64,000 nucleotides of DNA. It comes from Streptomyces sp. QL37. Its GTDB lineage: Bacteria; Actinomycetota; Actinomycetes; Streptomycetales; Streptomycetaceae. The notes under the pieces are model-generated. The model worked only from the letters and a program-made list of their open reading frames with translations. It was not told the DNA's origin and searched no databases. The stretch covers positions 2,852,001-2,916,000 of the forward strand of contig NZ_PTJS01000001.1 in assembly GCF_002941025.1 (NCBI RefSeq), given 5' to 3'. The position numbers were made by a program, and so were the translations under genes. This document shows, piece by piece, positions 33,261-56,206 of the stretch. Within the stretch, counting starts at the first letter, position 1, and each line of letters opens with the position of its first letter.

Positions 33261-33339
33261 TGAACCGATTAGTACAAGTTGTTGGGCTGCGCGGTTGCAC
33301 AACGCCGAGCGAGGCCGCTAGCTTGAACCACCTGGTTCA
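33261..33339. promoter_or_regulatory. TetR operators in the divergent tetR-MFS promoter region
   Basis: A full site TGAACC-ACCT-GGTTCA at 33324-33339 (embedded in TTGAACCACCTGGTTCAA) lies 38 bp before the MFS ATG. A degenerate site TGAACC-GATT-AGTACA at 33261-33276 lies 31 bp before the tetR GTG. Confidence 0.7.
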
Positions 33340-33376
33340 AAAGAGCTTCCGTCACGTTCGTACTGGAGTAGCGTCT

Positions 33377-34855
33377 ATGTCTCAAGCTCAGGACGACCGC
33401 CTGGATCCCAGGCTGTTACGGCTGATCGGTGTGGTCCTGCTGGGCGGGATCATGGGAATCCTCGACAGCACGATGGTGGCCGTGGCCGCCGACACCCTCT
33501 CCGAGGAGTTCAACACTTCTCTGACGGCGATCAGCTGGGCCTCCACCGCCTATCTGCTGACCCTCACCGTCACCATCCCCGTCACCAGCTGGGCGATCGG
33601 CCGGTTCGGAGTCAAGAAGCTGTGGCTCTTCGGCCTCGTGCTCTTCCTCGCCGGTTCCCTGGCCTCCGCGCTCGCCTGGAACGTGGAGAGCCTGATCGTC
33701 TTCCGCGTCCTGCAGGGCCTCGGATCCGGTGTGCTCGATCCGCTCGTGCTGGTGATCCTCGCCCGCGCGGCAGGCCCCAGCCGGGCCGGACGCGTCATGG
33801 GAATGATGGGCGTCGTGCTCTCCCTGGGCCCGGTGCTCGGTCCCGTACTGGGCGGCGTGGTCCTCGAAGCCCTGGACTGGCGCTGGATGTTCTTCATCAA
33901 CCTGCCCATCGGCGTCGTCGCCTTCTTCCTGGCCACCCGTGTCATCCCGGCGGACCCGAAGGCCGCGCAGCAGTCCGGCACCGGCCTCGACGTGCTCGGC
34001 TTCGCCCTGATGGCCCCTGGATTCGCCGCCATGGTGCTCGGCCTCACCCAGGCGGGAGAGCACGCCACCTTCGGTACGCCCACCGTGCTCGTGCCGCTCG
34101 GTCTCGGGCTGGTGCTGCTCGTCGCGTACGTGCTGCACGCGCTGCGGGCCCGGCGGACCCCGCCCCTGATCGACGTCCGTCTCTTCAGCAGCCGCAGCTT
34201 CGCCGCGAGCGTGACGGTCCAGGGCCTTGTCGGACTCGCCACCTACGCGGGCCTGTTCGCGCTGCCGCTCTACTACCAGCTGCTGCACGGACACGACGCG
34301 CGCGCGGCCGGGCTGCTGGTCGCCCCGCTGGGGCTCGGCTCGGCGCTGGCCATGCCCCTCGCCGGACGGCTCAGCGACCGCATGGGGGCCAGGAACCTCG
34401 CAGCGGGCGGCGCGGTCATCGCCGGTCTCGGCGGGGTCGCCCTCACTCAGATCGGCGCCGACACCACCGAACTCCTCTCGGCACTCGGCGCGTTCGCCAT
34501 CGGCCTCGGTCTCGGCGCGGTCGGCGCCCCCACCATGGGCGCGCTCTACCGCACGCTCCCCCCGGAGAAGGTCCCCCAGGGCAGCTCGGTGCTGTACAAC
34601 CTCAACCAGCTCGGCGGCGCCTTGGGCGTCGCGGGGGTCGCCCTCATCCTGGCGACCATGAACGCGGACAAGGGCTCCACCGCCGACGCTGTCAGCGGCT
34701 TCCACGGGGTGTACTGGTTCGTGACCGCGGTCTCCGTGGTCATCCTCCTCGCCACCCCGCTGCTTCCCGGCCGCCCGGAGGCGCCGGCCGCACCGGCGGG
34801 GGAAACGCCGACAGGGGAAGCACCGGCGAAGGAGACCGCAGGCCGAGCGGGCTGA
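33377..34855 (+). CDS. MFS drug exporter, DHA2 (14-TM) family
   Basis: 492 aa starting MSQAQDDRLDPRLLRLIG. Fourteen hydrophobic segments; motif A-like IGRFGVKKLWL after TM2, RVLQGLGSG and the antiporter motif C region GPVLGPVLGGVV in TM5 support a proton-driven drug exporter. The C-terminus is a Pro/Glu/Thr-rich tail. Divergent from tetR; probably exports and confers self-resistance to the polyketide. Confidence 0.92.
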   Translation: MSQAQDDRLDPRLLRLIGVVLLGGIMGILDSTMVAVAADTLSEEFNTSLTAISWASTAYLLTLTVTIPVTSWAIGRFGVKKLWLFGLVLFLAGSLASALAWNVESLIVFRVLQGLGSGVLDPLVLVILARAAGPSRAGRVMGMMGVVLSLGPVLGPVLGGVVLEALDWRWMFFINLPIGVVAFFLATRVIPADPKAAQQSGTGLDVLGFALMAPGFAAMVLGLTQAGEHATFGTPTVLVPLGLGLVLLVAYVLHALRARRTPPLIDVRLFSSRSFAASVTVQGLVGLATYAGLFALPLYYQLLHGHDARAAGLLVAPLGLGSALAMPLAGRLSDRMGARNLAAGGAVIAGLGGVALTQIGADTTELLSALGAFAIGLGLGAVGAPTMGALYRTLPPEKVPQGSSVLYNLNQLGGALGVAGVALILATMNADKGSTADAVSGFHGVYWFVTAVSVVILLATPLLPGRPEAPAAPAGETPTGEAPAKETAGRAG

Positions 34856-35129
34856 CGGGCTTGACGGAGCCCGGGCGGGCCGGGAGAGCAGGGCGCCGGT
34901 CCGGCGGGCCTTCCGCAGGACCGGCGCCGGGTCCCGGCAGAACGTACGGCACGACCCCGAGTGCCGCCCCTGCGAGGGCGGTCCTCAGTCGTGTGCGCCG
35001 GCGCACTCGCCGACCGGTACCGCGGCCGGGCAGGCGGTCGAGTGCCCGTGGCCCCGTCCACGGCGGCCGCGGCCGGATCCAGGACGCGCACCCGCACCGC
35101 CGACCGGGCGGCGAGCCTTCGCCGGCGCA

Positions 35130-35905
35130 CGGCGACCCTCCTGACGACGGGACGCTCCACCAGCGTGTGGAGCTTCCACGCGCACAGCAGCGAGACGGCG
35201 AACGCACCCAGGACCACCGCCGCGGCCACCGGGGTCGACCGGCTCCTGTCCGCTCCGAGCAGGCGATGCCCGTACACCAGGACGAGGCCGTGCACCATGG
35301 AGAAGCCGAAGGAGACCTCGCCGAGCCAGATCGGCAGGCGGCCGGCGGACGGGGCGCCACGCTCCTGGGCCTTCAGGTCGGCCTGGGTCACCGCTGCGAC
35401 CAGCAGGGCGAGCGGTATCACGGGCAGAGCCACCAGGCTGTACAGGTACGGCGCGTGGCAGGCGAGCCAGTAGCTGCCGACGACCGGAGCGGCAACGGGC
35501 AGCACCCGCAGACGCGGCATGAGGCCCTCGCGCACGAGCCGCGCGGTGAGGATCCCGAGGAGGAACTCCAGCATCCGGGTGGCCGGCAGGACGTAGACGA
35601 ACCTGAACTGATGGACGTCCGTCACCCCGTCGGGCATCGCCGCGACGGGCCCGGCGGGCAGATTCCGCGCGATCAGCGGGACCGCGGCGACGACCAGTAC
35701 GACCGACGCCGCCGAGCCCCACAGATACCTGGGCCCGATCCGTGACACCCAGCGCCACGACTGCTGTGACCAGGTGATTCGGGTACACCTTCGCGACTCT
35801 TCGCTGCCAGAACCCGCGCGGGGTGTCGGTGGGGCGGGCCGTCCGGGCGAGGACGAATCCGCTGAGTACGAAGAAGGACGAGACCCCGATCCATCCCGCC
35901 TTCTG
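35130..35905 (-). pseudogene. acyltransferase-3 (OafA-type) remnant
   Basis: Fragments of a membrane acyltransferase lie in two reading frames. One frame holds GWIGVSSFFVLSGFVLA and FWQRRVAKVYPNHLVTA; after about 35760 the homology continues in another frame with LWGSAASVVLVVAAVPLIA, LPATRMLEFLLGILTARL, LGEVSFGFSMVHGLVLVYG and LVERPVVRR. The conserved N-terminal HxxxFW segment and a central part are missing and no clean stop follows. Frameshift plus internal deletion; the gene is dead. Confidence 0.8.
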
Positions 35906-36260: not shown

Positions 36261-37298
36261 ATGACTGCGCAGCACCCCCCTGTTGTGGAAGAGCCCTCCA
36301 TCGGCCAGGTCATGGGAATTCTGAGCGGCTACTGGCACACGAAGATCCTGCTGACCGCGACGGAGGCGGACCTCTTCACCGTTCTGTCCGGCGGGTCGGC
36401 CACCGCGGAGGAACTGGCCGACCGGCTGAGGTTCCGGCTGCCGGGAGCCTCCGACTTCCTTCTCGCCCTGGCGGGAATCGGCCTGCTGGAGGCCGCGGAG
36501 GACGGCACCTTCCGTAACTCCGCCGCCGCGGAGGCCTTCCTGGTGAGCGGTCGCCCCGGCTACGTCGGCGGATATCTGAAGTTCTGCGACCGCGAACTGA
36601 ACCCGGCGTGGGACGGTCTCGGGGAGTCGCTGCGTACCGGGCTTCCCCGCAACGCCGCCGCGCGGGAGGGCAATCCGTACCACACCCTCTACCAGGACAC
36701 GGAGGCCACGGACTCCTTCCTGGAGAGCATGGACATGCTCAACACCCCGATCCTGGAACGGGTGGGTGCACTCGACTGGAGCCCGTACGAGTCCTTCGTC
36801 GACGTCGGCGGCGCGCGGGGCAACCTCGCCCATCACCTGACCGGCGCCCACCCGCACCTGAAGGGGGCCGTGTTCGACCTGCCGCCGCTGGCGGAGGCCT
36901 TCGGCACACACATGAAGGCGCTCGGCGGCGGAGACGGGATCGCATTCCACGGCGGGGACTTCTTCAGCGACCCGCTGCCCGGAGCCGATGTGATCGTTCT
37001 CGGACACGTGCTCCACAACTGGGGCCCGAAGGACCGTGCGGCACTGCTCCGCACCGCCTACGACGCGGTGCGCCCCGGCGGGGCGGTACTCGTCTACGAC
37101 CCCATGGTCAGCAACAGCCGACCGCCGCTCTACGCCACGCTGGCCAGTCTCAGCATGCTCGTCTGGTCCGCCGGCGGCGGCGAGTACTCGGTGGCCGAGT
37201 GCCATGCCCTGATGAAGGAAGCCGGGTTCCGCCCCGAGACCGTCGGCCCCGAGGACACCGTCGACGACGTGCTGGTGCTGGGCCACAAGGACCGCTGA
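36261..37298 (+). CDS. SAM-dependent O-methyltransferase
   Basis: 345-aa class I methyltransferase of the aromatic-polyketide O-MT family (TcmO/DnrK relatives). An N-terminal winged-helix dimerisation domain (residues 15-100) precedes the SAM-binding motif FVDVGGARGNLAHHL, with FHGGDFFSDPLPGADVI downstream and a LHNWGPKDRAALLR segment matching the catalytic His region. The ATG has GAGGAG upstream. Begins the long plus-strand biosynthetic operon; it would methylate a phenolic hydroxyl of the polyketide. Confidence 0.92.
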   Translation: MTAQHPPVVEEPSIGQVMGILSGYWHTKILLTATEADLFTVLSGGSATAEELADRLRFRLPGASDFLLALAGIGLLEAAEDGTFRNSAAAEAFLVSGRPGYVGGYLKFCDRELNPAWDGLGESLRTGLPRNAAAREGNPYHTLYQDTEATDSFLESMDMLNTPILERVGALDWSPYESFVDVGGARGNLAHHLTGAHPHLKGAVFDLPPLAEAFGTHMKALGGGDGIAFHGGDFFSDPLPGADVIVLGHVLHNWGPKDRAALLRTAYDAVRPGGAVLVYDPMVSNSRPPLYATLASLSMLVWSAGGGEYSVAECHALMKEAGFRPETVGPEDTVDDVLVLGHKDR

Positions 37299-37363
37299 GT
37301 GCGGCCCCGCGACATTCGCCCTGGATGCACGGCCGGCCCGGGAACGGACGAGAGGAGCGGCAC

Positions 37364-38833
37364 ATGGACGCATCAGTCGTAGTCGTAGGAGCTGGACCGG
37401 CCGGGCTCATGCTCGCCGGGGAACTGCGCCTGGCCGGGATCGACGTGGTGGTCCTGGAGAAACTGGCACGGAGCACAGGCGAGTCCCGCGGCATCGGGTT
37501 CACCCCGCGCACCATGGAGGTGTTCGACCAGCGGGGACTTCTGTCCCGCTTCGGCGACATCGAGAAGAGCGGCCAGGGACACTTCGGCGGCATTCCGCTG
37601 GACTTCGAGGTCCTGGGCGGAGGGGAACTGGCGGCCAGATCGGTGCCGCAGTCCGTCACCGAGAGCGTCCTGGAAGCATGGGCGCGTGAACTCGGGGCCG
37701 ACATCCGCCGGGGCCACGAATTCGCCGGGCTCACGGACCACGGGGACCGGGTCGACGTCCGGGTGCGCGACTCGGGCCACGAGCACACCCTGAGCGCCGC
37801 CTACCTGGTCGGGTGCGACGGAGGCCGCAGCGGCGTGCGCAAGGCCGGCGGGTTCGACTTCCCGGGCACCGCCGCCACCACCGAGCTCTTCCTCGCGGAC
37901 GTACGCGGTGTCGACCTGGAGCCGCGCATGGTGGCCGACCGGGTGACCGACGGCATGGTGATGGTGGGACGGCTCGGCGACGGCGTGCACCGCATCATCG
38001 TCAGCGAGCGCGGCGCACCGCCGCAGCGTCGTACCGGCCCGCCCGCCTTCGCCGAGGTCGCGGACGTGTGGAAGCGGCTCACCGGAATCGACATCTCGCA
38101 CGCCGAGCCGGTCTGGGTCAGCGCCTTCGGCGACGCCAGCCGGCAGGTCACCGAATACCGCAGGGGGCGGGTCCTGCTCTCGGGCGACTCCGCGCACATC
38201 CATCTGCCGGCCGGTGGCCAGGGAATGAACACCAGCGTCCAGGACTCGGTGAACCTCGGCTGGAAGCTGGCCGCGGTGCTGCGCTCCACCGCACCTCCCG
38301 CGCTGCTGGACACGTACCACAGCGAGCGCCACGAGGTCGGACGGCGCCTGCTCGCCAACACACGCGCCCAGAGCCTGCTGCTCCTGGGCAGTGAGGACGT
38401 GCAGCCGCTCCGCGACATGCTCGCCGAACTCGCCCTGCACGAGGAGGTGAGCCGCACCCTCGCGGCCAAGGCGGCGGGACTGGACATCCGTTACGACGTC
38501 GGCAAGGGGGTCAACCCGCTGCTCGGCCGGCGGATGCCCACCTGGGAGCTTCTGCGGGACGGCACCCCCACCACCAGCGCGGAACTGCTCAGGGCAGGCC
38601 GGGGCGTGCTCCTCGACCTGGCCGGCAACCAGCACCTGCGGCGACGTGCCGTCGGCTGGACGGACCGGGTCGACGTCGTGACGGCCACCCGCCGGAGCGA
38701 AGCAGGGGACGGACCGGCGGGCCGGGCGCACGCGGTCCTGATCAGGCCCGACGGGCACGTCGCCTGGATCGCGCCCGGCAGCCACCACGATCTGCCGATG
38801 GCGTTGGAACGCTGGTTCGGACCGGCCAGGTGA
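37364..38833 (+). CDS. FAD-dependent aromatic oxygenase, PgaE/UrdE type
   Basis: 489-aa group A flavoprotein monooxygenase. GAGPAG at 9-14 binds ADP, CDGGRS at 151-156 is the DG motif, and SGDSAHIHLPAGGQG at 273-287 the GD motif that holds FAD. A thioredoxin-like C-terminal domain (about 390-489) completes the family. In angucycline pathways PgaE-type enzymes hydroxylate C12 of the prejadomycin-like intermediate. It precedes the cyclase and KS genes exactly as pgaE does in the gaudimycin cluster. Confidence 0.93.
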   Translation: MDASVVVVGAGPAGLMLAGELRLAGIDVVVLEKLARSTGESRGIGFTPRTMEVFDQRGLLSRFGDIEKSGQGHFGGIPLDFEVLGGGELAARSVPQSVTESVLEAWARELGADIRRGHEFAGLTDHGDRVDVRVRDSGHEHTLSAAYLVGCDGGRSGVRKAGGFDFPGTAATTELFLADVRGVDLEPRMVADRVTDGMVMVGRLGDGVHRIIVSERGAPPQRRTGPPAFAEVADVWKRLTGIDISHAEPVWVSAFGDASRQVTEYRRGRVLLSGDSAHIHLPAGGQGMNTSVQDSVNLGWKLAAVLRSTAPPALLDTYHSERHEVGRRLLANTRAQSLLLLGSEDVQPLRDMLAELALHEEVSRTLAAKAAGLDIRYDVGKGVNPLLGRRMPTWELLRDGTPTTSAELLRAGRGVLLDLAGNQHLRRRAVGWTDRVDVVTATRRSEAGDGPAGRAHAVLIRPDGHVAWIAPGSHHDLPMALERWFGPAR

Positions 38834-39016
38834 GATTCCGGGAGCACGGGAGACCCCGGGCCCACGTGACGCGGTCCGGACGAGGTTCCGCCGGCAGCGG
38901 GACGCGGTAGCCGCACCCACCGGACGCCGCGACGCGACACGGCACCCACGCCACGCAGCGCCCGACACACGCCGCACGCAGGTGCGCAGAGCACACGTGT
39001 GCAGAGAGAAGGAACG

Positions 39017-39343
39017 ATGCCAAGCACTCTGATCGTCGCGCGGATGAACATCGAATCGGCGGACGAAGTCGCCCGGATCTTCTCGGAGTTCGACGACACG
39101 GAAATGCCGCACCTGATGGGGACCCGACGCCGGGAGCTGTTCTCCTACCGCGGCCTGTACTTCCACCTCCAGGACTTCGACGGGGAGAACGGCGGGTCGC
39201 GGATCGAGGAGGCCAAGGCCCACCCGCGGTTCATCAAGGTCAGTGAGGACCTGAAGCCGTTCATCGAGGCCTACGACCCGGCCACCTGGCGCTCGCCGGC
39301 CGACGCCATGGCCCAGCGGTTCTACCATTGGAACGGAAGGTGA
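39017..39343 (+). CDS. polyketide cyclase, TcmI/JadI family
   Basis: 108-aa dimeric alpha/beta-barrel-type cyclase that closes the last ring(s) of the aromatic polyketide. Typical features: TLIVARMN at the start, [20 protein letters not shown] and YFHLQDF. Its stop overlaps the GTG of KS-alpha (GTGA). RBS GAAGGAACG. In angucyclines this family (JadI, PgaF, UrdF) directs the bent fourth-ring closure. Confidence 0.93.
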
Positions 39344-40620
39344 GCGCGCAGCGGGGCCGGCGGGTCGTCATCACCGGTATCGGTGTCACCGCCCCCGGCG
39401 GCTCCGGAACCAAGGGCTTCTGGCAGCTGCTCACCGACGGCCGGACGGCCACCCGCCGGATCTCCCTCTTCGACTCCTCGGCGTTCCGCTCCCAGATCGC
39501 CGCCGAGGTGGACTTCGACGCGGAGGCACTCGGGCTGCGCCCGCAGGAGATCCGCCGGATGGACCGCGCGGCACAGTTCGCCGTGACGACCGCCCGCGAG
39601 GCCGCGGTGGACAGCGGGCTTGAGTTCGCCGCCGTCGACCCGGCCCGTACGGGAGTCTCCCTCGGCACCGCGGTCGGCGCGACGATGGGCCTGGACGAGG
39701 AGTACCGCACCGTCAGCGACGGCGGCCGCCTCGAACTCGTCGACCACGCCTACGCCGTACCGCACCTCTACAGCTACATGGTCCCCAGCTCGTTCGCCGC
39801 CGAGGTGGCCTGGTCCGTCGGCGCCGAGGGGCCGGTCACCGTGGTCTCCACCGGCTGCACCTCCGGGCTCGACGCGGTCGGCCACGCGGCGGACATCATC
39901 AGGGAGGGCTCCGCCGACGTCATGATCGCCGGCGCCGCCGAAGCACCGATCTCCCCGATCACGGTCGCCTGCTTCGACGCGATCAAGGCCACGACGCCCC
40001 GCAACGACGACCCCGAGCACGCCTCGCGGCCCTTCGACGCGAGCCGCAACGGCTTCGTCCTCGGTGAGGGGTCCGCCGTGTTCGTACTGGAGGAACTGGA
40101 GAGCGCCCGGCGCCGGGGCGCCCATGTGTACGCCGAGATCGCCGGCTACGCGACCCGTTCCAACGCCTTCCACATGACCGGCCTGCGCCCCGACGGCGCG
40201 GAGATGGCCGAGGCCATCCGGGTGGCCATGGCGGAGGCACGGGTGAACGCCGAGGACATCGACTACATCAACGCGCACGGATCCGGGACCAAGCAGAACG
40301 ACCGGCACGAGACGGCGGCGTTCAAGCGGAGCCTGGGCGAGGCCGCGTACCGGGTGCCCATCAGCTCCATCAAGTCCATGATCGGCCACTCGCTCGGCGC
40401 GGTCGGCTCCATCGAGCTGGCCGCCTCCGCGCTGGCCATGGAGCATCACGCGGTGCCGCCCACGGCCAATCTGCACACCGCGGACCCGGAGTGCGACCTC
40501 GACTACACGCCGCTGGTCGCCCGCGAGCAGCGGACCGACACCGTGCTGTCGGTCGGCAGCGGATTCGGCGGGTTCCAGAGCGCGGTGGTGCTCGCCCGGC
40601 CCGACAGGAGTCAGCGATGA
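39340..40620 (+). CDS. type II PKS ketosynthase alpha
   Basis: 426-aa catalytic KS of the minimal PKS; it extends the chain with malonyl-ACP. Active-site Cys173 in [12 protein letters not shown], His313 in [12 protein letters not shown], and Lys345/His350 in SIKSMIGHS are all present, so the enzyme is intact. The GTG start overlaps the cyclase stop; the stop overlaps the KS-beta ATG (ATGA), keeping equimolar synthesis of the heterodimer. Confidence 0.97.
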
Positions 40621-41837
40621 ACGTCAGCACAGTGGTGACGGGCCTGGGAATCGCCGCGCCCAACGGGCTGGGCCTGGAGGAGTACTGGTCCGCCACCCTC
40701 GCGGGCCGCAGCGGCATCGGCCCGGTGTCACGCTTCGACGCCTCCTCCTACCCGGCCCGGCTCGCGGGCGAGATCGACGGCTTCGTCGCCGAGGACCATC
40801 TGCCGGGGCGGCTCCTGCCCCAGACCGACCGGATGACACAACTCGCCCTGGTGGCCGCCGGATGGGCGCTGGACGACGCGGGCGTCGTGCCCGGCGATCT
40901 CCCCGAGTACGACATGGGTGTGATCACCGCCAGCCACTCCGGCGGATTCGAGTTCGGCCAGAACGAACTCAGGGCGCTGTGGAGCAAGGGCGGCAAGTAC
41001 GTGAGCGCCTACCAGTCCTTCGCCTGGTTCTACGCGGTCAACAGCGGCCAGATATCCATCCGCAACGGCATGCGGGGGCCGAGCGGTGTCGTCGTCAGCG
41101 ACCAGGCGGGCGGCCTCGACGCACTCGCCCAGGCCCGGCGGCAGATCCGCAAGGGCACACCGCTGATCGTCTCCGGCGCCGTCGACGCGTCCATCTGCCC
41201 CTGGGGGTGGGTGGCCCAGCTCGCGAGCGACCGGCTCAGCCACGGCGACGTACCCGAGCGCGCCTACCTGCCCTTCGACGACTCCGCGGCCGGGCACGTG
41301 GCCGGCGAGGGTGGAGCCCTGCTCGTCCTGGAGGAGGAGAGCCACGCCCGCGCCCGGGACGCTCGGCGGATCTACGGCCGGATCGCGGGCCACGCCGCCA
41401 CCTTCGACCCGCCGCGGGACAGCGGGCGGGCCCCCGCCGTGCAGACGGTGATCGATCAGGCGCTGGCGGACGCCGCCGTCACCGCGGAGGAGGTGGACGT
41501 GGTCTTCGCGGACGCCGCCGGCCTGCCCGGCCTCGACCGGGTGGAGGCCGAGGCGATCTCCAAGGTGTTCGGCCCGCGAGGGGTGCCGGTGACGGCTCCC
41601 AAGACCATGACCGGGCGGCTCTACTCGGGGTCGGCGCCGCTGGACGTGGCGACCGCCTGCCTCAGCATCCGGGACGCGGTGATTCCGCCCACCGTGCACA
41701 CCTCGCCCTCGGGCCGGTACGACATCGACCTGGTGACCGGCGCCCCACGCGAGGCGACCGTGCGGTACGCGCTCGTGATCGCCCGCGGATACGGCGGCTT
41801 CAACTCGGCGGTCGTCGTCGGCGCACCGCACGGCTGA
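40617..41837 (+). CDS. type II PKS chain length factor (KS-beta)
   Basis: 406 aa. The KS fold is kept but the active-site Cys is replaced by Gln163 ([11 protein letters not shown]), the hallmark of CLFs, which decarboxylates malonyl-ACP to start the chain and sets its length. The angucycline context predicts a decaketide. Translationally coupled to KS-alpha. Confidence 0.97.
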
Positions 41838-41920
41838 CGAAGGAGAGCCGGAGCGCGGAGACGGATACCGCCACGACACCTCCTGTACACACCCACCCCT
41901 CTCGGAGAGCAGGAACAGCC

Positions 41921-48499: not shown

Positions 48500-48513
48500 A
48501 CAGGAGCCCGAGG

Positions 48514-48750
48514 ATGACTGGACCGACCGGACCGGCAGGACCGCCGCGACAAGAACTCCTGCGGGTGGAGCGGGGGCACCCCGACGCCGAGGAGCTGGCC
48601 GCGCTCACCGCTGTGCTGCTCGTCCGCACCGCGGCCGTACGCGACACCGCGACCGTGCACGGCCCGTCCCCTGCCGGCGCCCGCTGGCGCCGACCGGAGC
48701 GGACACCGGCCTTCGCGAACCCACGGGCCTGGCGCCGGGAAACCGGCTGA
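48514..48750 (+). CDS. acyl-CoA carboxylase epsilon subunit
   Basis: 78-aa small subunit. LRVERGHPDAEELAALTAVL is the family core helix and WRRPERTPAFANPRAWRRE the conserved tail. Epsilon subunits stabilise actinomycete ACC complexes. The gene lies 14 bp after the beta subunit and 12 bp before the MFS gene. Confidence 0.9.
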   Translation: MTGPTGPAGPPRQELLRVERGHPDAEELAALTAVLLVRTAAVRDTATVHGPSPAGARWRRPERTPAFANPRAWRRETG

Positions 48751-48762
48751 AGTGGCGGGGAA

Positions 48763-50013
48763 ATGAATCCGAAGCACACGAGCACCCCGCCGGACGCGGA
48801 CGCCGATCCGGGGAGTTGGGGCGCCCGCTGGTGGACCCTGCTGTTCGTCCTCTCCGGGAACATGGTGCTGGACGCCGTCGAGGTCTCCGTCGTCCTCGTC
48901 GCACTCCCTTCCATCGGCGCCGACCTCGGTCTCTCCCTCCTGTCGGTGCAGTGGCTGATGAGCGGCTTCGCGCTCGGGTTCGCCGCGCTGCTCACGCTCG
49001 GCCCCCGGGTCAACGCACGTTTCGGAAGAAGGCGTGCGTACCTCGGGGCCATGCTGGTCTTCGCGGCGGCCTCGGTGGCGGGCGGGTTCGCGGAAAGTGA
49101 AGGACCGCTGATCGCGACCCGGGTGGTCAAGGGGTTCTGCGCGGCGCTCACCGCGCCCACCGGGCTGGCCATCATCAGCACCACCTTCCAGGAGGGGCCC
49201 GGGCGGCGTCGGGCGGTCTCGGTGTACTCCCTGTTCGGCGCGGTCGGATTCACCGTCGGGGTGCTGCTCTCGGCGGTGGCCCTGGAATCCAGCTGGCGCT
49301 GGACCTTCCTCTTTCCCGCCCCCGTCGCCCTCCTGCTGTTCTTCCTCGCGATGCGGTTGATTCCGCGGGACCCGGACCCGGCGCGGGTGCCGTCGCGCGG
49401 ACTCGCGCCGCTCCTCCGCGACGGATGGCTCGTACGCTCGGGGCTGGGCGCCGCGACCCTCAACGGGACCTACGCCGGGATGCTGCTCCTGGTCACCTTC
49501 CTCCTGCAGGAGCGGTGGGGCTGGTCCCCCTGGCAGTGCGCCCTCGCGCTGCTGCCCGCCTGCGTGCCACTGGCCGTGGCCGTTCCCTTCGCCGGCCGGC
49601 TCGTCGGCAGGTTCGGTACGGCCAGGCTTACAGCGGCGGGGGCCCTCGCTCCGGTCATCGGCTGCGGGCTGTGCCTGTGGAGGATCGCGGACGGCGGCTA
49701 CTGGACCGCGGTGCTGCCCATGCTCCTCCTGGTCGAAGCCGGGTTCGTCCTCTCGTTCGCCGCACTGAACATGCAGGCCACGTCGACGGTCGAAGCCGCC
49801 GACCGGGCCCGCGCCGTCCCGCTCTACCAGACCGGAGTACAGCTCGGCGGTGTGCTGACGCTGCCGCTGGTCGCGCTGCTGATGACGGTGTACGACGGCT
49901 ACTCCGCCGCGTTGTCCCTGCTCACCGCGGTGGGAACAGTGGGGTTCCTCATCGCGCTCACCGGGCTCCGCCGCGATGCGGCCGTGCCCACCCGTCCCGC
50001 CACCCCTTCCTAG
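48763..50013 (+). CDS. MFS transporter
   Basis: 416 aa with about 12 hydrophobic segments. NARFGRRRAYLGAMLV is motif A, RVVKGFCAALTAPTGLA follows, and GLVGRFGTARL-like repeats the pattern in the second half. Third exporter-type protein of the cluster; probable role in export of the product or an intermediate. No regulator of its own is adjacent. Confidence 0.9.
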   Translation: MNPKHTSTPPDADADPGSWGARWWTLLFVLSGNMVLDAVEVSVVLVALPSIGADLGLSLLSVQWLMSGFALGFAALLTLGPRVNARFGRRRAYLGAMLVFAAASVAGGFAESEGPLIATRVVKGFCAALTAPTGLAIISTTFQEGPGRRRAVSVYSLFGAVGFTVGVLLSAVALESSWRWTFLFPAPVALLLFFLAMRLIPRDPDPARVPSRGLAPLLRDGWLVRSGLGAATLNGTYAGMLLLVTFLLQERWGWSPWQCALALLPACVPLAVAVPFAGRLVGRFGTARLTAAGALAPVIGCGLCLWRIADGGYWTAVLPMLLLVEAGFVLSFAALNMQATSTVEAADRARAVPLYQTGVQLGGVLTLPLVALLMTVYDGYSAALSLLTAVGTVGFLIALTGLRRDAAVPTRPATPS

Positions 50014-50026
50014 GAAAGGCCGACCC

Positions 50027-50611
50027 GTGCAAGAGCAACCGCTCAGACTGGCAGTCGTCGTCGGGAGCGTCCGCGACGGCAGGTTCGCGCCCGCCGTGGC
50101 CGACTGGTTCGCCCTGCGGACCAGGACGCGGGACGACTTCGAGATCGATGTGATCGATCCGGCCGACCACTGTCTGCCGCTGTCCATGCCGTCCGCGCTG
50201 CCGCCGGAGGCCGCCGCGTCGCGGGACGGGCTGTCCGCCAGGCTCGCGGCGGCGGACGCCTTCGTGGTGGTGACGCCCGAGTACAACCACACCTTCCCCG
50301 CGGCGCTGAAGAACCTCCTCGACTGGTTCCTCTCGGAATGGGCGGCCAAGCCCGTCGGGTTCGTGTCCTACGGCGGCATGGCGGGCGGGCTGCGGGCGGT
50401 GGAGCACCTGCGCCAGGTCTTCGCCGAACTGCACGCGGTCACGGTGCGCGACGGTGTCAGCTTCCACAACCCCTGGCAGGAGTTCGCTGATCACGGAGGA
50501 CCCCGCGACGCCGCGGCCGCCGAGGGCGCGGCCAAGACGATGCTCGACCAACTCGCCTGGTGGGGAGAGGCCCTGCGCCGGGCACGACGCCAGCACCCCT
50601 ACTCGCGTTGA
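50027..50611 (+). CDS. NADPH-dependent FMN reductase family protein
   Basis: 194 aa from a GTG 14 bp after the MFS stop. VVGSVRDGRFAPAVADWF, VVTPEYNHTFPAALKNLLDW and FVSYGGMAGGLRAVEHL define the flavodoxin-like fold. Clearly paralogous to the product of 29711-30307. It could supply reduced flavin to the ABM or FAD oxygenases or reduce a quinone intermediate. Confidence 0.9.
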   Translation: MQEQPLRLAVVVGSVRDGRFAPAVADWFALRTRTRDDFEIDVIDPADHCLPLSMPSALPPEAAASRDGLSARLAAADAFVVVTPEYNHTFPAALKNLLDWFLSEWAAKPVGFVSYGGMAGGLRAVEHLRQVFAELHAVTVRDGVSFHNPWQEFADHGGPRDAAAAEGAAKTMLDQLAWWGEALRRARRQHPYSR

Positions 50612-50622
50612 ACGGAGCCGAC

Positions 50623-51264
50623 ATGCCTCGTCAGATCTCTCTCGCGATGCCCGACCTGCGCAGGACCGACGCCACCTCGGTGTTCGTCGCGCAGGTGTAC
50701 GTGCCCGGCAGGGCGAGCGGGCTGGAGACGGCCGCACATCTGGCCGAGCAGTGGAGCCGCCCGGGGCGCCCCTCGTCGGTCCTCTCCTTCAGCTGCTACC
50801 TCAGCACGGGCGAGGACACCGTGCTGACCTACGTCCAGTGCGACGACGGGGATTCCTACCATCCCTTCGTCCGCTCGCTGGAGGGAGCCGCGCAATGGCC
50901 GGCGGTGGAGTACCGGCTGCGCAGGAGCGTACGACCGGCGGGCAACGACGGGCCGCCGGCCTGCGTGGTCGTCGCCACCTTCGACGTCGACGGGGCGGAA
51001 CGCCAGGACCGGGTCATCGACTCGCTGTCCGACGCGATCGAGGGCATGCCGGCCGACCGTACCGAAGGCATGATCTCCGCGAACTTCCATGTGAGCACCG
51101 ACGCCAGCCGCGTCCTCAACTACGCGGAGTGGACCTCGGACGAGGCCCACACGGCCTTCCTCGGCAGCACGACCCGGGAAGCGACCAAGCGGGCCAGCGG
51201 CGGCATCCCGGGGGTGCGGCCCATCGGCTTCAAGCGCTACCACCTGCTGCACGGCATCCGGTGA
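50623..51264 (+). CDS. didomain antibiotic biosynthesis monooxygenase (ABM) protein
   Basis: 213 aa with two ferredoxin-like ABM repeats: SVFVAQVYVPGRASGLETA to SYHPFVRSL, and CVVVATFDVDGAERQDRVID to NFHVSTDASRVLNYAEW. Cofactor-free ABM enzymes oxidise anthrone or quinol carbons. A related didomain protein is encoded at 58207. The stop overlaps the PPTase GTG. Confidence 0.88.
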   Translation: MPRQISLAMPDLRRTDATSVFVAQVYVPGRASGLETAAHLAEQWSRPGRPSSVLSFSCYLSTGEDTVLTYVQCDDGDSYHPFVRSLEGAAQWPAVEYRLRRSVRPAGNDGPPACVVVATFDVDGAERQDRVIDSLSDAIEGMPADRTEGMISANFHVSTDASRVLNYAEWTSDEAHTAFLGSTTREATKRASGGIPGVRPIGFKRYHLLHGIR

Positions 51265-51995
51265 TCGACGAGCTGCTGCCCGCCTGCGTCGCAGCGGCCC
51301 ACACCTTCGGCGACGTGGCGGACGCGGACCTCCTCCCCGAGGAGCTGCGCCACATGGCGGGTGCGGTGGAGAGACGGCGCAGGTCGTTCCGTACGGGACG
51401 GCACTGTGCCCGGCAGGCCCTCGCCTCACTGGGCCGTACCGCCCGCCATCCACTGCTGCCGGGGCCCCACGGGGAACCGTTGTGGCCCCGCGGCGTCGTC
51501 GGCAGCATCACCCACTGCGAGGGCTACCGGGCGGCCGCGGTGGCCGAGGACCGGGACCTGGCCTCTCTCGGCATCGATGCCGAACCGCACGCCGCGCTGC
51601 CCGCGGGGGTGCTCCGCAAGGTCATGTCCCCGCACGAGGGTGGACGGCTGGCCCGGCTCTTCGGCCTGCATCCCGAAGTGCACTGGGACCGGCTGCTGTT
51701 CAGCGCCAAGGAGGCCGTCTACAAGACCTGGTTCCCCCTGACCGGCACCGGGCTCGGTCTCCAGGACATCGAGGTGACGATCGCCCCCGGCCTCCGCGGA
51801 AGTGCTGTAGGCGCCCGCGGTGCCACGGGTTCCGGGGCCGGCGCGGGGACGGGTGCCTTCCACGCCCACGTGCCGCGGTCCCGTATCGGGGCGGGGCGGC
51901 TGTCCGTCCTGCGGGGACACTGGCTGGTGCGCGACGGCCTGCTGGTCACCGCGGCGATCCGCACCAGGGAGGAGCAAACGGTCGAATCCTGGTGA
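51261..51995 (+). CDS. 4'-phosphopantetheinyl transferase, Sfp/EntD (JadM) type
   Basis: 244 aa. Conserved blocks: GSITHCEGYRAA, LGIDAEPHAALP (Mg-binding Asp and Glu) and FSAKEAVYKTWFPLTG. Converts apo-ACP to holo-ACP. The C-terminal part has a Gly/Ala-rich insertion (about 180-200) before FHAHVPRSRIG. GTG overlaps the ABM stop. Dedicated PPTases also occur in jadomycin-type clusters. Confidence 0.94.
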   Translation: MIDELLPACVAAAHTFGDVADADLLPEELRHMAGAVERRRRSFRTGRHCARQALASLGRTARHPLLPGPHGEPLWPRGVVGSITHCEGYRAAAVAEDRDLASLGIDAEPHAALPAGVLRKVMSPHEGGRLARLFGLHPEVHWDRLLFSAKEAVYKTWFPLTGTGLGLQDIEVTIAPGLRGSAVGARGATGSGAGAGTGAFHAHVPRSRIGAGRLSVLRGHWLVRDGLLVTAAIRTREEQTVESW

Positions 51996-52199
51996 AACTC
52001 CTCCGGCCGAAAACCGGGGTCAACCTTGGTGCTATTCGCGGCTCCTGGCCACTTCCCGCATGGCACGCTGCGACGTGCCGCAACCGATGGCGTGCGCAAC
52101 GGCGCGCTGCGAGCATCGGTCCCCGCTCCGGATCCTCCCGGAGCGTCCGACAGCGATTGGCCTGCCCATACCCATCAAGTGAAGTCACAGGAGAAGAAC

Positions 52200-53000
52200 A
52201 TGTCGCACGACCTCGATCTGCTGTGCCGGGCCCACCCCGCCCCGCAACCCCCACCGCGCACTCCGAGGCCGCCCCTGGGGCGGCGCGACCTGACGGCCGT
52301 GGAATCCTGGACCATTCTGGTGGTGTGCGGGGACACGCGGGCGGCGCAGTCCCTCGCCGACGAACTGAGCTGGCACGGCCACACGGTCAGACCGGTCACG
52401 ACGGGCGCCGCCGCCCTGGAGGAGCACCACAGCGTCGACCTCATCCTGCTGGACCTCGCCCTGCCGGACGTGGACGGCCTGCAGGTCTGCCGCACCATCG
52501 CCGCACAGAGCGACATCCCCATCCTCGCCGTCACCGGGCGCAGCACCGAACTCGACCGTGTCCTGGGGCTCCAGGCGGGAGCGGACGACTATGTGACGGA
52601 GCCGTACGGAGTGCGTGAGCTGCTCGCCCGCATGGCCGCGGTGATGCGCCGGGCGAGGCCTCGCCCCCGGACCGCGCCCCGTACGCGGGTGGGGCCGCTC
52701 GTCATCGAGCGGGAGACCCGCGAGGTGCGGCTGCACGGATGTCTCGTCCCGCTCACCCGCAAGGAGTTCGACCTCCTGCAACTGCTGGCCTCCCAGCCCG
52801 GGACGATCTTCCCCCGTCGGCAGTTGTTGCAGCAGATCTGGCACGACACCGACGTGACGCGCAGTCGCACCATCGACACGCACGTCAACAGCCTGCGTCG
52901 TAAGCTCGGTTCGAGCCAGTGGGTGCTCACCGTCCGGGGAGTGGGCTTCAGCCTCTCCGAAAGGCTCGCTCCTTCCTCGGTCGCCATGCGCTGTCCCTGA
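52200..53000 (+). CDS. OmpR-family orphan response regulator, JadR1-like
   Basis: 266 aa with RBS GGAGAAG. Receiver domain (38-150) keeps Asp85 (LILLDLALPD) and Thr112, but the acidic pair is reduced (VVCGDT) and the conserved Lys of the K-P motif is Glu134 (VTEPYG). A trans_reg_C winged helix (165-260) follows. No histidine kinase is nearby. JadR1-type atypical regulators of angucycline clusters respond to pathway products instead of phosphate, which fits these substitutions. The last 53 bp overlap the convergent MFS gene. Confidence 0.9.
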   Translation: MSHDLDLLCRAHPAPQPPPRTPRPPLGRRDLTAVESWTILVVCGDTRAAQSLADELSWHGHTVRPVTTGAAALEEHHSVDLILLDLALPDVDGLQVCRTIAAQSDIPILAVTGRSTELDRVLGLQAGADDYVTEPYGVRELLARMAAVMRRARPRPRTAPRTRVGPLVIERETREVRLHGCLVPLTRKEFDLLQLLASQPGTIFPRRQLLQQIWHDTDVTRSRTIDTHVNSLRRKLGSSQWVLTVRGVGFSLSERLAPSSVAMRCP

Positions 53001-54321
53001 CCTCGGGACCGGAGGCGGTGCCGGTCGGCAGTCCGTCGTACGGATCGGCCGCGGTGACGCCTTGCGGCGCTTCGGCGGTGGTCTCCTTCGGCCGCTCGCG
53101 TCTCCCGGCGCGCACGGCGATGGAGACCCCCCACGCGACGAGGACGGCGACCAGGCACACCGCCCCGGCCACACCCAGTCCGGTGCGTGCTCCTGACCGT
53201 TCCACGAGCCGGCCCGTCAGGAGTGCGCCGAGGGGCGTGGTGCCTTGGTGGACCAGGGTGTAGAGGGCCATCACCCGGCCGCGGTAGGAGGGGGCGGTGC
53301 CGAGCTGCAGGCGGTGGTTGGCCGCTTGCGCGAACACCATCATCGCGAGGCCCGTGAAGCCCAGCGCGACCAGCGCCACCGGGAGGCTGGGAGCCAGCGC
53401 CGAGCAGAGTTCGCACAGGGCGAAGGCACCGGCGCCGAGCAGCACCGTGCGTTCACTCGGTCTGCCGCGGCGCAGCGTGGTCATCAGCGCCGCCACCAGG
53501 GATCCCGCGGCCATGGCCGCGGTCAGCAGCCCGAACGTGGCGGACCCGGTCCCGAACACCGTCTTCGCGAGCAGCGGCAGCGTCACCTGGAAGTTGAACC
53601 CGACCAGCCCGATCACCGCCACCAGCAGCAGCGGCAGCAGGAGGTCGGGCCTGCCCCGGATGTACCGGAGCCCGGCCGCCACCCCGCCGCGGGCCGGCCG
53701 GGCCCCTGAGCGGTGGAGCTCCGAGGGCCGCATGCGCAGGAGTGCCACCAGGGTGCCGAGGTAGCTGACCGCGTTGAGCAGCACCACCGTCGGCACGCCC
53801 CACACGTGGATGAGGATCCCGGCTGCCGCCGGTCCCAGTACGCGCGCGGAGTTGAAGTACGCCGCGCTCAGCGCGGAGGCGTTCGGCAGCAGGTCGGAGC
53901 CCACCATCTCACTGACGAACGCCATCCGTGCGGGTATCTCCACCGCGTTCACCACACCGATGCCCAGCGCGCAGACGACGATGTGCCACAGCCGCGGCTG
54001 CCCGGAGAGGACCACGGCCGCCAGCGCCAGGGCCAGCAGCGCGAGCAGTCCGTTCGCGGCGATCAGCAGCTTGCGCTTGTCGTAGCGGTCCGCCAGCCGG
54101 CCGCCCAGCAGGGTGAGGAGCAGTACGGGCGTGAACTGGGCGGCGGTCACCAGGCCGAGCGCTCCGGCCGAGTCGTCGCTCATCCGCAGCACGAGCCAGT
54201 CCTGCGCGGTGAACATCATCCACGTGCCCGTGACCGAGGCGAGCTGGCCCAGAGTGAAGAGCCGGAAGTTGCGGACCCGTAGCGACGCCGTCATCCTCCG
54301 CAGGACTGCCGTTCGGCTCAT
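52948..54321 (-). CDS. MFS exporter (12 TM), third gene of a TetR-controlled operon
   Basis: 457 aa starting MSRTAVLRRMTASLR. Twelve hydrophobic segments with motif A GGRLADRYDKRKLLIAANG; TM block typical of the MFS_3/enterobactin-exporter-like family. Start overlaps the hydrolase stop (ATGA). Overlaps the 3' end of the response-regulator gene by 53 bp on the opposite strand. Confidence 0.9.
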   Translation of the reverse strand: MSRTAVLRRMTASLRVRNFRLFTLGQLASVTGTWMMFTAQDWLVLRMSDDSAGALGLVTAAQFTPVLLLTLLGGRLADRYDKRKLLIAANGLLALLALALAAVVLSGQPRLWHIVVCALGIGVVNAVEIPARMAFVSEMVGSDLLPNASALSAAYFNSARVLGPAAAGILIHVWGVPTVVLLNAVSYLGTLVALLRMRPSELHRSGARPARGGVAAGLRYIRGRPDLLLPLLLVAVIGLVGFNFQVTLPLLAKTVFGTGSATFGLLTAAMAAGSLVAALMTTLRRGRPSERTVLLGAGAFALCELCSALAPSLPVALVALGFTGLAMMVFAQAANHRLQLGTAPSYRGRVMALYTLVHQGTTPLGALLTGRLVERSGARTGLGVAGAVCLVAVLVAWGVSIAVRAGRRERPKETTAEAPQGVTAADPYDGLPTGTASGPEVRDSAWRPRKERAFRRG

Positions 54322-55238
54322 GCCGGAGCCGCCCGCGGAGGACGGTGGCACATGGCCAGGAAGTCGAGGACGCGGTGGTGATAGGTGCGGGCGGCGTTAC
54401 CCAGACTGATGTTGTGTCCCGCGCCTTCCAGCCGTTCCGTGCGCACCAGCGGCGACGCCAGCCGTGCGGTCATCTCCCGTACCGTCCGCGCGTCGCACCG
54501 CCACCACCGCTCGTGCTCGGCGAAGGTGAAGCGTACGGGGACACGGATCCGCGGCGCGATCGCTGCGAAGGTGGACGGCCAGTACGGTGCCTCTTCCGCC
54601 TCCCGTCGCGGCAGAGGAGCGATCAACGGCGCCGCCAGTTCGAAGGTCCGGGGCGGGTAGAGGGCGAGCGGGCCCCAGTGCAGACCGTGGGTGCCGCGCG
54701 CGCCCGGGCCGGTCAGCCGGGTGGGGCTGACCGCCCAGCGATCACTGATGCCGGAGACGTCGACCCCCAGCAGCCCGCCCTTCCGCCAGCCCGCCGCGGT
54801 GGTGAGCGCCACCTTGCCGCCCAGTGAATGTCCCACCAGGAAGAAGCCGGCCCCGCACGGGTGGGAGCGCCGGTACCCGGCCAACGCCCCCCGGACCACG
54901 GCGGCCTGCTCGGCGAGCCCCATGCCGTGGGGCACCCTTTCCGCCGATCGGCCGTAGCCGGGCCGGTCGAGGGCGAGTGCCGCGTACCCGTGGCGGGCGG
55001 CGAGGGTGAGCAGCGAGGCGCCGGGGTCAGCCCGTCCGTGGAAGTATCCGGCCCGCATGCCTCCGCCGTGCAGGGCGACCACCACGGCCCGGGGCGCCGT
55101 CCGCCCGGGGAGCGCGATGAGCCCGGACAGCGGAACCCCGTAGCCGCTCAGCTCGACGGCCCGGCCCTGGACGCCTTCCTCCGCGGCCGACGGGTACGGC
55201 GCCGGCGGCACGGACGCTGCGGACGGGCGCTCCGGCAT
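54318..55238 (-). CDS. alpha/beta hydrolase
   Basis: 306 aa. VVALHGGGMRAGYFHGRAD forms the oxyanion region, GHSLGG holds the nucleophile Ser (about residue 141), and GAGHNIS the catalytic His. Between SDR and MFS genes with 2-bp gap and ATGA overlap, so co-transcribed. Could hydrolyse an ester or lactone of the product, or release it; substrate unknown. Confidence 0.88.
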   Translation of the reverse strand: MPERPSAASVPPAPYPSAAEEGVQGRAVELSGYGVPLSGLIALPGRTAPRAVVVALHGGGMRAGYFHGRADPGASLLTLAARHGYAALALDRPGYGRSAERVPHGMGLAEQAAVVRGALAGYRRSHPCGAGFFLVGHSLGGKVALTTAAGWRKGGLLGVDVSGISDRWAVSPTRLTGPGARGTHGLHWGPLALYPPRTFELAAPLIAPLPRREAEEAPYWPSTFAAIAPRIRVPVRFTFAEHERWWRCDARTVREMTARLASPLVRTERLEGAGHNISLGNAARTYHHRVLDFLAMCHRPPRAAPA

Positions 55239-55240
55239 GG

Positions 55241-56065
55241 TCAGCGGCCTAGCAGTTCTCGGGTCAGCTCGTCGAGCCGGAGGGCGTCCGCCAGGCGGAA
55301 GGAAGGGTGGTCCAGGCTCATCCGGCGTCCCTCCACGAAGGCGCTCAGCGGCTCCGCCGGAGGGGAGTCCAGACAGGTCACGATGGGCGCGATACCGGCC
55401 TCGACGGACTTGGCCATCCGCTTCATCCCCTCGATGTGCCCCTTCGTCGCCGCGTCGTACTCGCCGGAGAAGCTGGTGGAGACACTGCCCGGGTTGAACA
55501 GGACGTAGCGCGTCCTGCCACCGTCGTACAGGCTGGCGAAGGAGACGCCCAGCAGGTCGTTGGCCTTTCCGCCCTGCATCTGCGCGTCCAGGCCGTGGTA
55601 GTTCCGCTTCAGCTGCAGATCGTCCCAGTGGATCTCACCCATGGGGCTGCCGGGGCCCGCGACATTGACGATCACAGGCCGGTCCGCCTTCTCCAGGTGT
55701 CCGCGCAGTCCGTGGCTGAGCAGGTACCGGCTCAGATAGAAGAGCGCGAGACTGCTCTCGATGCCCTCCGCGGTGTCCCGGCGCGGCGACAGGTAGTGCC
55801 GGGCGCACAGGACCAGCGCGTCCACCACGGGGAACCGTTCGCCGATCTCCTCGACGACCCGGTCGTTCTCGCTCACGAGGCTCAGGTCGGCCTGGAGGAA
55901 AGCGGCCCGGGAGCCTGCTCCCGCGGCGTTCGCCTCGGCGAGGAACGCCTGCCCCTTCGCCTCGCTCCTGCCGATGACGAGGACGGCGTCGCCCCGGTTC
56001 AGGTAGGTGCGGGCGAGGGCGCGGCCCATGCCGTCGGTACCGCCCTGGATGACGATGTTCTTCAC
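55241..56065 (-). CDS. atypical short-chain dehydrogenase
   Basis: 274 aa from GTG 56065 with GGGGAGA upstream. Rossmann loop QGGTDGMGRALA near residue 6; LSLVSENDRVVEEI and VNVAGPGSP follow. The usual Tyr-x3-Lys is not recognisable: the position reads AQMQGGKAND. It may have lost classical catalysis or act by another geometry. First gene of the minus-strand SDR-hydrolase-MFS operon. Confidence 0.82.
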   Translation of the reverse strand: MKNIVIQGGTDGMGRALARTYLNRGDAVLVIGRSEAKGQAFLAEANAAGAGSRAAFLQADLSLVSENDRVVEEIGERFPVVDALVLCARHYLSPRRDTAEGIESSLALFYLSRYLLSHGLRGHLEKADRPVIVNVAGPGSPMGEIHWDDLQLKRNYHGLDAQMQGGKANDLLGVSFASLYDGGRTRYVLFNPGSVSTSFSGEYDAATKGHIEGMKRMAKSVEAGIAPIVTCLDSPPAEPLSAFVEGRRMSLDHPSFRLADALRLDELTRELLGR

Positions 56066-56128
56066 GGATCTCCCCGGGATGGAGCGGAACGCCACGCTTC
56101 GCACGCGGTCGGATGAGCCGGCATGAGA

Positions 56129-56206
56129 TGAACCGGTGAGTTAAACCTAATGACCCAGCACGAAAAAGGCAACGAGCTCGACTACTGGAATGAACCGCAC
56201 GGTTCA
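56129..56206. promoter_or_regulatory. TetR-type operators upstream of the SDR-hydrolase-MFS operon
   Basis: A full site TGAACC-GCAC-GGTTCA at 56191-56206, inside a 20-bp palindrome overlapping the last SARP codons, and a degenerate site TGAACC-GGTG-AGTTAA at 56129-56144, 64 bp before the SDR start. Same spacing and half-sites as at 33261 and 33324. Confidence 0.7.

What the first reader, a model, noticed from the sequence alone, without database searches (positions are those of the whole stretch)
33261..56206. One TetR operator motif links two exporter operons 23 kb apart
TGAACC-N4-GGTTCA occurs perfectly at 33324-33339, in front of the tetR/DHA2-MFS pair, and at 56191-56206, in front of the SDR-hydrolase-MFS operon. 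Each is accompanied by a degenerate copy (33261 and 56129) with the same 4-base spacer. The sequences are seen directly; that the TetR at 32514 binds both is inference. This would make one ligand-responsive repressor co-ordinate export and self-resistance at both borders of the cluster.
Basis: partly seen in the sequence, partly recalled or inferred. Interest (0 to 1): 0.7.

Follow-up and report, generated by a model that had tools for sequence, protein, structure and literature searches.

The report
One repressor, two distant antibiotic-cluster operons
A Streptomyces-type aromatic-polyketide gene cluster carries the same repressor-binding DNA motif in front of two operons 23 kb apart, and related genomes keep both copies, so one repressor very probably controls both; this is a well-supported case of a familiar kind of self-protection switch.

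Summary
TGAACC-N4-GGTTCA occurs exactly twice in the 8.78-Mb genome, both times in this window, each with a degenerate partner. A matrix built only from other genomes ranks these four sites 1-4 of the window, more than 10 bits above the rest. The motif sits in front of relatives of this TetR (22 of 29 loci examined, against 1 of 343 control windows). The four relatives found with His for Pro in the recognition helix have TGCACY-N4-RGTGCA pairs instead. In three other genomes of the genus the SDR also has its own operator besides the one at tetR; of 20 SDR loci without this tetR nearby none has a site with at most 1 mismatch. Best explanation: a cluster-situated, autoregulated TetR repressor controls export (tetR/DHA2) and an SDR-hydrolase(-MFS_3) operon. 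Binding, repression, ligand and the SDR's role are inferred. New member of a known kind (SimR/SimX, LanK/LanJ).

The parts
32514..33233 (-). tetR: TetR-family repressor, 239 aa by ORF; TetR_N + TetR_C_7 (AefR-like C-terminal domain); recognition helix VAKPTIYNH
33261..33276 (.). Operator O2 (2 mismatches), on the tetR side of the divergent region
   Evidence: (22.6 bits, rank 2 of the window)
33295..33328 (+). Predicted DHA2 promoter TTGC-N20-TAGCTT running into O1; TTGC, TA, TT and the operator arms are invariant in 5 aligned genomes
   Evidence: a strict sigma-70 scan found none
33324..33339 (.). Operator O1, perfect TGAACC-ACCT-GGTTCA, at the predicted transcription start of DHA2
   Evidence: 23.7 bits, rank 1
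33377..34855 (+). DHA2-family MFS efflux pump (EmrB subfamily, above its curated cut-off); the ORF from 33260 includes both operators and is probably over-long
36261..53000 (+). Type II aromatic polyketide (angucycline-type) core: O-methyltransferase, monooxygenase (37367-38494), cyclase, KSalpha, KSbeta, ACP-like frame (judged by eye), ketoreductase, aromatase, monooxygenase-SDR fusion, SDR, carboxyltransferase, MFS (48763-50013), FMN reductase, ABM oxygenase, OmpR-type regulator (52026-53000)
   Evidence: 'angucycline-type' is recalled from known gene sets
52948..54351 (-). MFS_3-type exporter, third gene of the second operon; not found in the fetched G019 and G349 regions
54318..55238 (-). 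Alpha/beta hydrolase (GHSLG nucleophile motif), second gene of the second operon
55241..56065 (-). Atypical SDR, first gene of the second operon (GTG start at 56065; the ORF list extends it to 56104); no YxxxK motif
56129..56144 (.). Operator O4 (2 mismatches, TTAACTCACCGGTTCA on the SDR strand), at the predicted SDR transcription start
   Evidence: (21.0 bits, rank 3)
56140..56172 (-). Predicted SDR-operon promoter TTGC-N19-TAGGTT, same layout as the DHA2 promoter
   Evidence: a strict sigma-70 scan found none
56191..56206 (.). Operator O3, perfect TGAACC-GCAC-GGTTCA, 62 bp from O4; lies inside the last codons of the SARP ORF
   Evidence: (19.8 bits, rank 4)
56182..58119 (-). SARP/AfsR-like regulator gene directly upstream of the second operon (below the curated AfsR cut-off)

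Best explanation
The TetR encoded at 32514-33233 is a cluster-situated, autoregulated repressor. As a dimer it binds TGAACY-N4-RGTTCA sites. It sits on the paired sites O1/O2 between tetR and the DHA2 exporter gene, and on O3/O4 in front of the SDR-hydrolase-MFS_3 operon 23 kb away. In each region one site lies over the predicted -10/+1 of the target promoter and the other 62-63 bp away. When the cluster's polyketide or an intermediate accumulates and binds the C-terminal domain, the repressor leaves both regions and both operons are switched on together. Shown computationally: the sites, their rarity, footprint conservation, helix/operator co-change and the conserved dual-operon arrangement. 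Inferred: binding by this protein, repression rather than activation, the ligand, and the role of the second operon in protection or product handling.
For: (1) Only 2 perfect sites in 8.78 Mb, both here. (2) A matrix from 41 sites in other genomes ranks O1, O2, O4, O3 as the top four of 64 kb at 19.8-23.7 bits; the next scores 9.6. (3) Upstream of 29 other TetR relatives, 22 have a site with at most 2 mismatches (17 perfect) and 18 have two or more, against 1 of 343 control windows. (4) Genomes with the TetR (E<=1e-30) have a perfect site in 31 of 42 cases, those without in 83 of 350, P = 2e-10. (5) Of 43 TetR proteins compared, 4 have KHT instead of KPT in the recognition helix, and all 4 have two TGCACY-N4-RGTGCA sites in front of tetR; the tree puts the four in two places. 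(6) G019, G349 and G037 carry operators both at tetR/DHA2 and in front of the SDR, about 21, 19 and 5 kb apart. (7) 0 of 20 SDR loci without this tetR nearby have a site with at most 1 mismatch. (8) In G385 and G171 the SDR follows DHA2 on the same strand, below the altered operators. (9) The promoter-plus-operator composite occurs only at these two places in the genome.
Against: No binding or expression data exist. In 3 of 10 tetR-linked SDR loci (G350, G224, G258) no operator precedes the SDR. 7 of 29 relatives lack a TGAACC-type site with at most 2 mismatches (3 of these are the KHT ones, 4 are not), as do 7 of 13; of 8 more distant named loci only 2 have one. A different TetR gene in the same genome has a near-identical site in front of it (1616873). 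A strict sigma-70 scan finds no promoter in either region. G019, G349 and G037 each have only one site with at most 2 mismatches before the SDR, not two. The spacing of the two sites varies among relatives, including 58 and 47-48 bp, about 5.5 and 4.5 helical turns, so the same-face placement seen here is not a general feature.
Confidence: 0.87

Rival explanations
1. A different TetR-family protein of the genome, not the one at 32514, binds one or both regions (cross-talk). The TetR-like gene behind the site at genome position 1616873 is the obvious candidate.
For: Site TGAACTGATTGGTTCA scores 27.4 bits with the operator matrix and lies about 50 bp before a TetR-like gene.
Against: That site is embedded in a longer palindrome (CATCTTGAAC...GTTCAAGATG) that the window sites lack, and that protein's helix reads NRSSIYSS (both read by eye). 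The operator tracks the relatives of the window's TetR and changes with their recognition helix.
Confidence: 0.06
2. The TetR controls only tetR/DHA2; the sites before the SDR are relics of an older arrangement in which the SDR stood beside tetR or behind DHA2, and have no function now.
For: SDR is directly beside tetR or behind DHA2 in other genomes (G120, G385, G171); O4 has 2 mismatches.
Against: A site with at most 1 mismatch is kept before the SDR in 4 of 4 genomes found with a separate SDR operon near tetR and its own promoter (window, G019, G349, G037), although which of the two positions carries it differs; relics would be expected to decay.
Confidence: 0.05
3. The palindromes are chance or a generic repeat.
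For: The perfect motif occurs in 114 of 392 genomes; at up to 3 mismatches the window shows only a modest excess.
Against: 0.002 perfect sites are expected per 50 kb; promoter position, pairing and conservation.
Confidence: 0.01

Closest known systems
SimR/SimX (simocyclinone cluster)
   Same: Divergent TetR repressor and MFS exporter inside a cluster with an aromatic-polyketide part; [quoted passage not shown] OmpR-type activator in the same cluster (passages read: PMC5812520; PMC3261101).
   Different: The passages describe the simR/simX region only, no second operon under SimR. No chain named SimR was among the 60 of 83 solved-structure matches shown for this TetR. Ligand unknown here.
LanK/LanJ (landomycin cluster)
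   Same: TetR repressor sharing a promoter region with an exporter gene in an angucycline cluster; landomycins relieve repression (passages read: PMC11766693).
   Different: Sequence relation to LanK not tested. The passages read give no operator sequence and no second operon sharing it.
JadR* (jadomycin cluster)
   Same: TetR repressor in an angucycline cluster that responds to intermediates and controls a non-exporter gene, jadY (passages read: PMC6930871).
   Different: Different target; sequence relation not tested.
NapW-type self-resistance SDR (naphthyridinomycin)
   Same: An SDR encoded with an antibiotic pathway that protects the producer (abstract and outline seen: PMC8648761).
   Different: No solved structure matched this SDR at E<=1e-8 by sequence, and this SDR lacks the catalytic-type tyrosine.

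Membership tests
TetR-family transcriptional repressor | N-terminal TetR_N helix-turn-helix | tested here: met
   PF00440, 53.9 bits, cut-off 24
TetR-family transcriptional repressor | C-terminal ligand-binding-type domain | tested here: met
   PF14246 TetR_C_7, 102.4 bits, cut-off 22
TetR-family transcriptional repressor | Palindromic operator at its own promoter region (autoregulation) | tested here: met
   O1/O2 and pairs in relatives; binding itself not tested
TetR-family transcriptional repressor | Homodimer released from DNA by a ligand | not testable with these tools
   needs protein
Exporter repressor of the SimR/LanK kind | Divergent from an MFS exporter gene within an antibiotic cluster | tested here: met
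Exporter repressor of the SimR/LanK kind | Two operators between repressor and exporter genes | tested here: met
   O1 and O2, 63 bp apart; 18 of 29 relatives also have two or more sites
Exporter repressor of the SimR/LanK kind | Cluster product or intermediate is the inducing ligand | not testable with these tools
   no ligand data
Exporter repressor of the SimR/LanK kind | Sequence orthology to SimR or LanK | tested here: inconclusive
   no chain named SimR among the 60 of 83 solved-structure matches shown; LanK not tested
Two-operon regulon sharing one operator | Second operon keeps the operator in related genomes | tested here: met
   G019, G349, G037
Angucycline-type type II PKS cluster | Minimal PKS, ketoreductase, cyclase/aromatase, monooxygenase-SDR fusion, ABM oxygenase | tested here: met
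   (ACP by eye only); assignment of this gene set to angucyclines is recalled

The most novel reading that the evidence does not exclude
This TetR clade and its atypical SDR form a portable sense-and-protect module of actinobacterial aromatic-polyketide clusters. The module is rearranged freely (SDR divergent from tetR, behind the exporter, or 20 kb away), yet the SDR tends to stay under the operator. The SDR, which lacks the canonical catalytic tyrosine, would be a product-binding or product-modifying protection factor rather than an ordinary ketoreductase. The repressor/operator pair has changed specificity, probably twice, by a Pro-to-His change matched by an A-to-C change in the half-site.
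Probability: 0.25. Interest if true: 0.6.

Novelty: new member of a known kind. Interest (0 to 1): 0.42.

Why it matters
It turns an eye-read motif into a testable two-operon regulon with a defined operator, a defined repressor and a predicted specificity residue. It links an uncharacterised SDR-hydrolase pair to export and, by inference, to product response. The KPT/TGAACY and KHT/TGCACY pairs would be ready-made orthogonal repressor-operator pairs if binding is confirmed. It is not surprising in kind: repressor control of self-protection genes in antibiotic clusters is well established (review passage, PMC6627628).

Tried and rejected
Chance or generic palindrome: rejected on rarity and conservation. 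Up-to-3-mismatch counting in the window was uninformative. Further regulon members in the genome: all nine 1-mismatch sites were fetched as seven stretches. L124 stands before another TetR-like gene. By a G+C-by-codon-position frame test the sites in L126, L127 (three), L128 and L129 fall inside predicted frames, L125 at a frame's edge, and L130 has no predicted frame near the site and was left undecided. Strict sigma-70 scans found no promoter, so the promoter reading rests on alignment and the composite search. A literature search for TetR with both half-sites gave 1,120 papers; 15 were listed, look unrelated by title (the terms also match primers and words such as 'tetracycline') and were not read. 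The MexL search gave two papers, not read. Solved structures gave no sequence match to the SDR (E<=1e-8) or the hydrolase (E<=1e-5). Dropped: the second operon as simply 'another exporter operon', since its MFS_3 was not found in G019 and G349; and same-face pairing of the two operators as a general rule, since spacing in relatives includes 4.5 and 5.5 turns.

Limits of the counts: one search found 47 matches in 42 genomes; loci were returned for 30, one of them the window's own, so 29 were examined. Thirteen more loci (L167-L179) and 8 named ones (L033-L040, of 28 loci) were examined. One search found 37 SDR matches in 32 genomes; 30 loci (each with 1.5 kb on either side) were examined. 'tetR nearby' means a relative within 25 kb. 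The 41 matrix sites were chosen with the pattern itself (at most 2 mismatches). The 31 of 42 and 83 of 350 were tallied by hand. A Fisher test of helix type against operator type used hand tallies of related sequences and is not used. The TGCACY operators of three KHT loci were first seen by eye and then confirmed.
Full report
What is there. Within each pair the sites lie 63 and 62 bp apart, and the perfect copies are 22,867 bp apart. The genome (8,783,195 bases) holds no other perfect copy and none of the reversed control pattern. A looser form, TKWACYNNNNRGTWMA, has 7 copies, 4 of them these. A promoter-plus-operator form, TTGC-N19-21-TANNTTKAAC, has exactly 2 copies, one at each locus. Across the genus the perfect motif is commoner: 114 of 392 genomes have at least one, giving an expectation of 0.002 per 50 kb.

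Surroundings. The left pair lies between tetR (32514-33233, minus; TetR_N plus TetR_C_7) and a DHA2-family efflux gene (33377-34855, plus; above the curated EmrB-subfamily cut-off). The right pair lies in front of an operon on the minus strand: SDR (start GTG 56065), alpha/beta hydrolase, MFS_3 exporter. Between them is a type II polyketide core of angucycline type with an OmpR-type regulator, and beyond the second operon a SARP/AfsR-like regulator gene. The angucycline label rests on recalled gene sets.

Does this TetR own the motif? In 392 genus genomes, 42 encode a relative at E<=1e-30. Of 29 relatives other than the window's own whose surroundings were returned, 22 have a site with at most 2 mismatches in the 250 nt around the gene start, 17 of them perfect, and 18 have two or more sites; 1 of 343 control windows from the same loci does. 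A matrix made from those 41 foreign sites ranks O1, O2, O4 and O3 as the four best positions of the window (23.7, 22.6, 21.0, 19.8 bits; next 9.6). The foreign sites were chosen with the pattern, so high scores for the perfect copies are partly built in; the high rank of the two degenerate copies is less so. Genomes with the TetR hold a perfect motif in 31 of 42 cases, the others in 83 of 350 (P = 2e-10). Conservation fades with distance: of the 7 of 29 without a TGAACC-type site, three are the KHT proteins below and four are not; 7 of 13 have none, and of 8 more distant named loci only 2 have one.

Specificity co-change. The loci with TGAACC-type operators have the recognition helix AKPT.Y[NS]H. 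Four of 43 relatives read AKHT instead (three, one from another taxonomic family), and all four have two TGCACY-N4-RGTGCA sites in front of tetR (G385, G171, G152, G443). The tree of 43 proteins puts three of them in one well-supported clade and the fourth elsewhere, on a branch that is not fully supported, so two separate changes are likely though not proven. This ties the operator to this protein rather than to some other regulator.

Is the second operon really in the regulon? SDR relatives (E<=1e-60) occur in 32 of 392 genomes. Of 30 SDR loci examined, 10 lie within 25 kb of the tetR relative. Four of these (window, G019, G349, G037) have their own site with at most 1 mismatch just before the SDR. 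In G385 and G171 the SDR follows DHA2 on the same strand, below the altered operators. In G120 tetR and SDR are divergent with a 2-mismatch site between. The remaining three (G350, G224, G258) have no operator before the SDR; in G350 a different palindrome stands there, and in G258 a 1-mismatch site lies between the SDR's end and a DHA2-like gene. Of the 20 SDR loci without this tetR nearby, 0 have a site with at most 1 mismatch. As weaker support, ten TetR/SDR pairs among the 120 homologues listed for each share the same longest-contig length, including one from Streptosporangium; that they lie on the same contig is inferred from equal length.

Synteny. G019 has the window's genes in the window's order, and G349 has the same set with the terminal block (OmpR regulator-hydrolase-SDR-SARP) inverted; at E<=1e-15 neither the MFS_3 gene nor the FMN reductase was found in either. 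So the SDR kept an operator although its block was turned round, and the conserved second target is SDR-hydrolase. G037 keeps tetR-DHA2-OmpR regulator-hydrolase-SDR-SARP, but in the 60 kb fetched the only ketosynthase match is 27% identical.

Promoter anatomy. Aligned DHA2 promoters from 5 genomes and SDR promoters from 4 share TTGC, then TA..TT running straight into the operator; in the window the gap between the hexamers is 18 and 17 bases. O1 and O4 take this +1 position; O2 and O3 lie 63 and 62 bp away, about six helical turns. In the SDR promoters the stronger copy is upstream in the window, G349 and G037, and at +1 in G019, a pattern of site turnover with control retained. Among relatives the spacing varies and includes 58 and 47-48 bp, about 5.5 and 4.5 turns, so a same-face arrangement is not general. 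A strict sigma-70 scan finds nothing in either region, so the promoters are a comparative inference.

How it most likely works. An autoregulated TetR dimer blocks RNA polymerase at both promoters until a small molecule binds it; then export and the SDR-hydrolase operon come on together. SimR/SimX (two operators, release by simocyclinone; passages) and LanK/LanJ (passages) are the functional models, JadR*/jadY (passages) the model for a non-exporter target. I put about 0.87 on this TetR controlling both regions, and about 0.65 on the ligand being a product or intermediate of this cluster. The SDR's role is open: SDR-based self-resistance exists (NapW, abstract), but in 16 of 16 aligned homologues, the window's included, no tyrosine stands at the place of the YxxxK tyrosine, so it may not be an ordinary reductase.

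Novelty. The kind of system is known. I found no report of this operator or this two-operon regulon in the searches made, but these covered only the open library, listings were capped, and only passages or abstracts of six papers were seen.

Noticed in passing
55241-56065: The SDR has a GGTDGMG-type nucleotide-binding start but no tyrosine at the YxxxK place; the same holds for 16 of 16 aligned homologues (57-100% identical), with a QGGK-like stretch there in most. Possibly a non-canonical SDR family.
   Followed up: partly
56182-58119: The SARP/AfsR-like ORF runs through operator O3 in its last codons, whereas the SARP frames of G019 and G349 stop before their SDR promoters.
   Followed up: partly
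L124 2874-2889 (genome 1616873): A second, unrelated-looking TetR-like gene has TGAACTGATTGGTTCA within a longer palindrome before it: possible cross-talk.
   Followed up: partly
L098 (G149): A tetR/DHA2 pair with paired operators (71-84% identical to the window's) stands in the 73 kb fetched without a polyketide core or the SDR operon: possibly acquired resistance in a non-producer.
   Followed up: partly
L098, L102, L109, L157: A gene about 47-50% identical to the window's other SDR (46021-46890) lies close beside tetR in G149, G019, G037 and G350; no such gene was seen beside the window's tetR.
   Followed up: no
48763-50013: A third MFS gene inside the cluster has no copy of the operator with at most 2 mismatches in front of it.
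   Followed up: no
L079, L080, L081, L085, L174, L175, L176: In these relatives the two sites are 47-48 bp apart instead of about 60-63, roughly 4.5 helical turns, so the two dimers would face opposite sides.
   Followed up: no
L127 (genome 4677290-4678533): Three near-copies of the motif (TGAACCAGATGGTTGA) lie in predicted frames on both strands, two of them 215 codons long, as in an inverted repeat.
   Followed up: no
L133 (G350): The SDR beside tetR has a different palindrome (AAGTCATCAATCGATGACTT) in its promoter, apparently with another TetR-like gene upstream (read by eye): the SDR may have changed regulator there.
   Followed up: no
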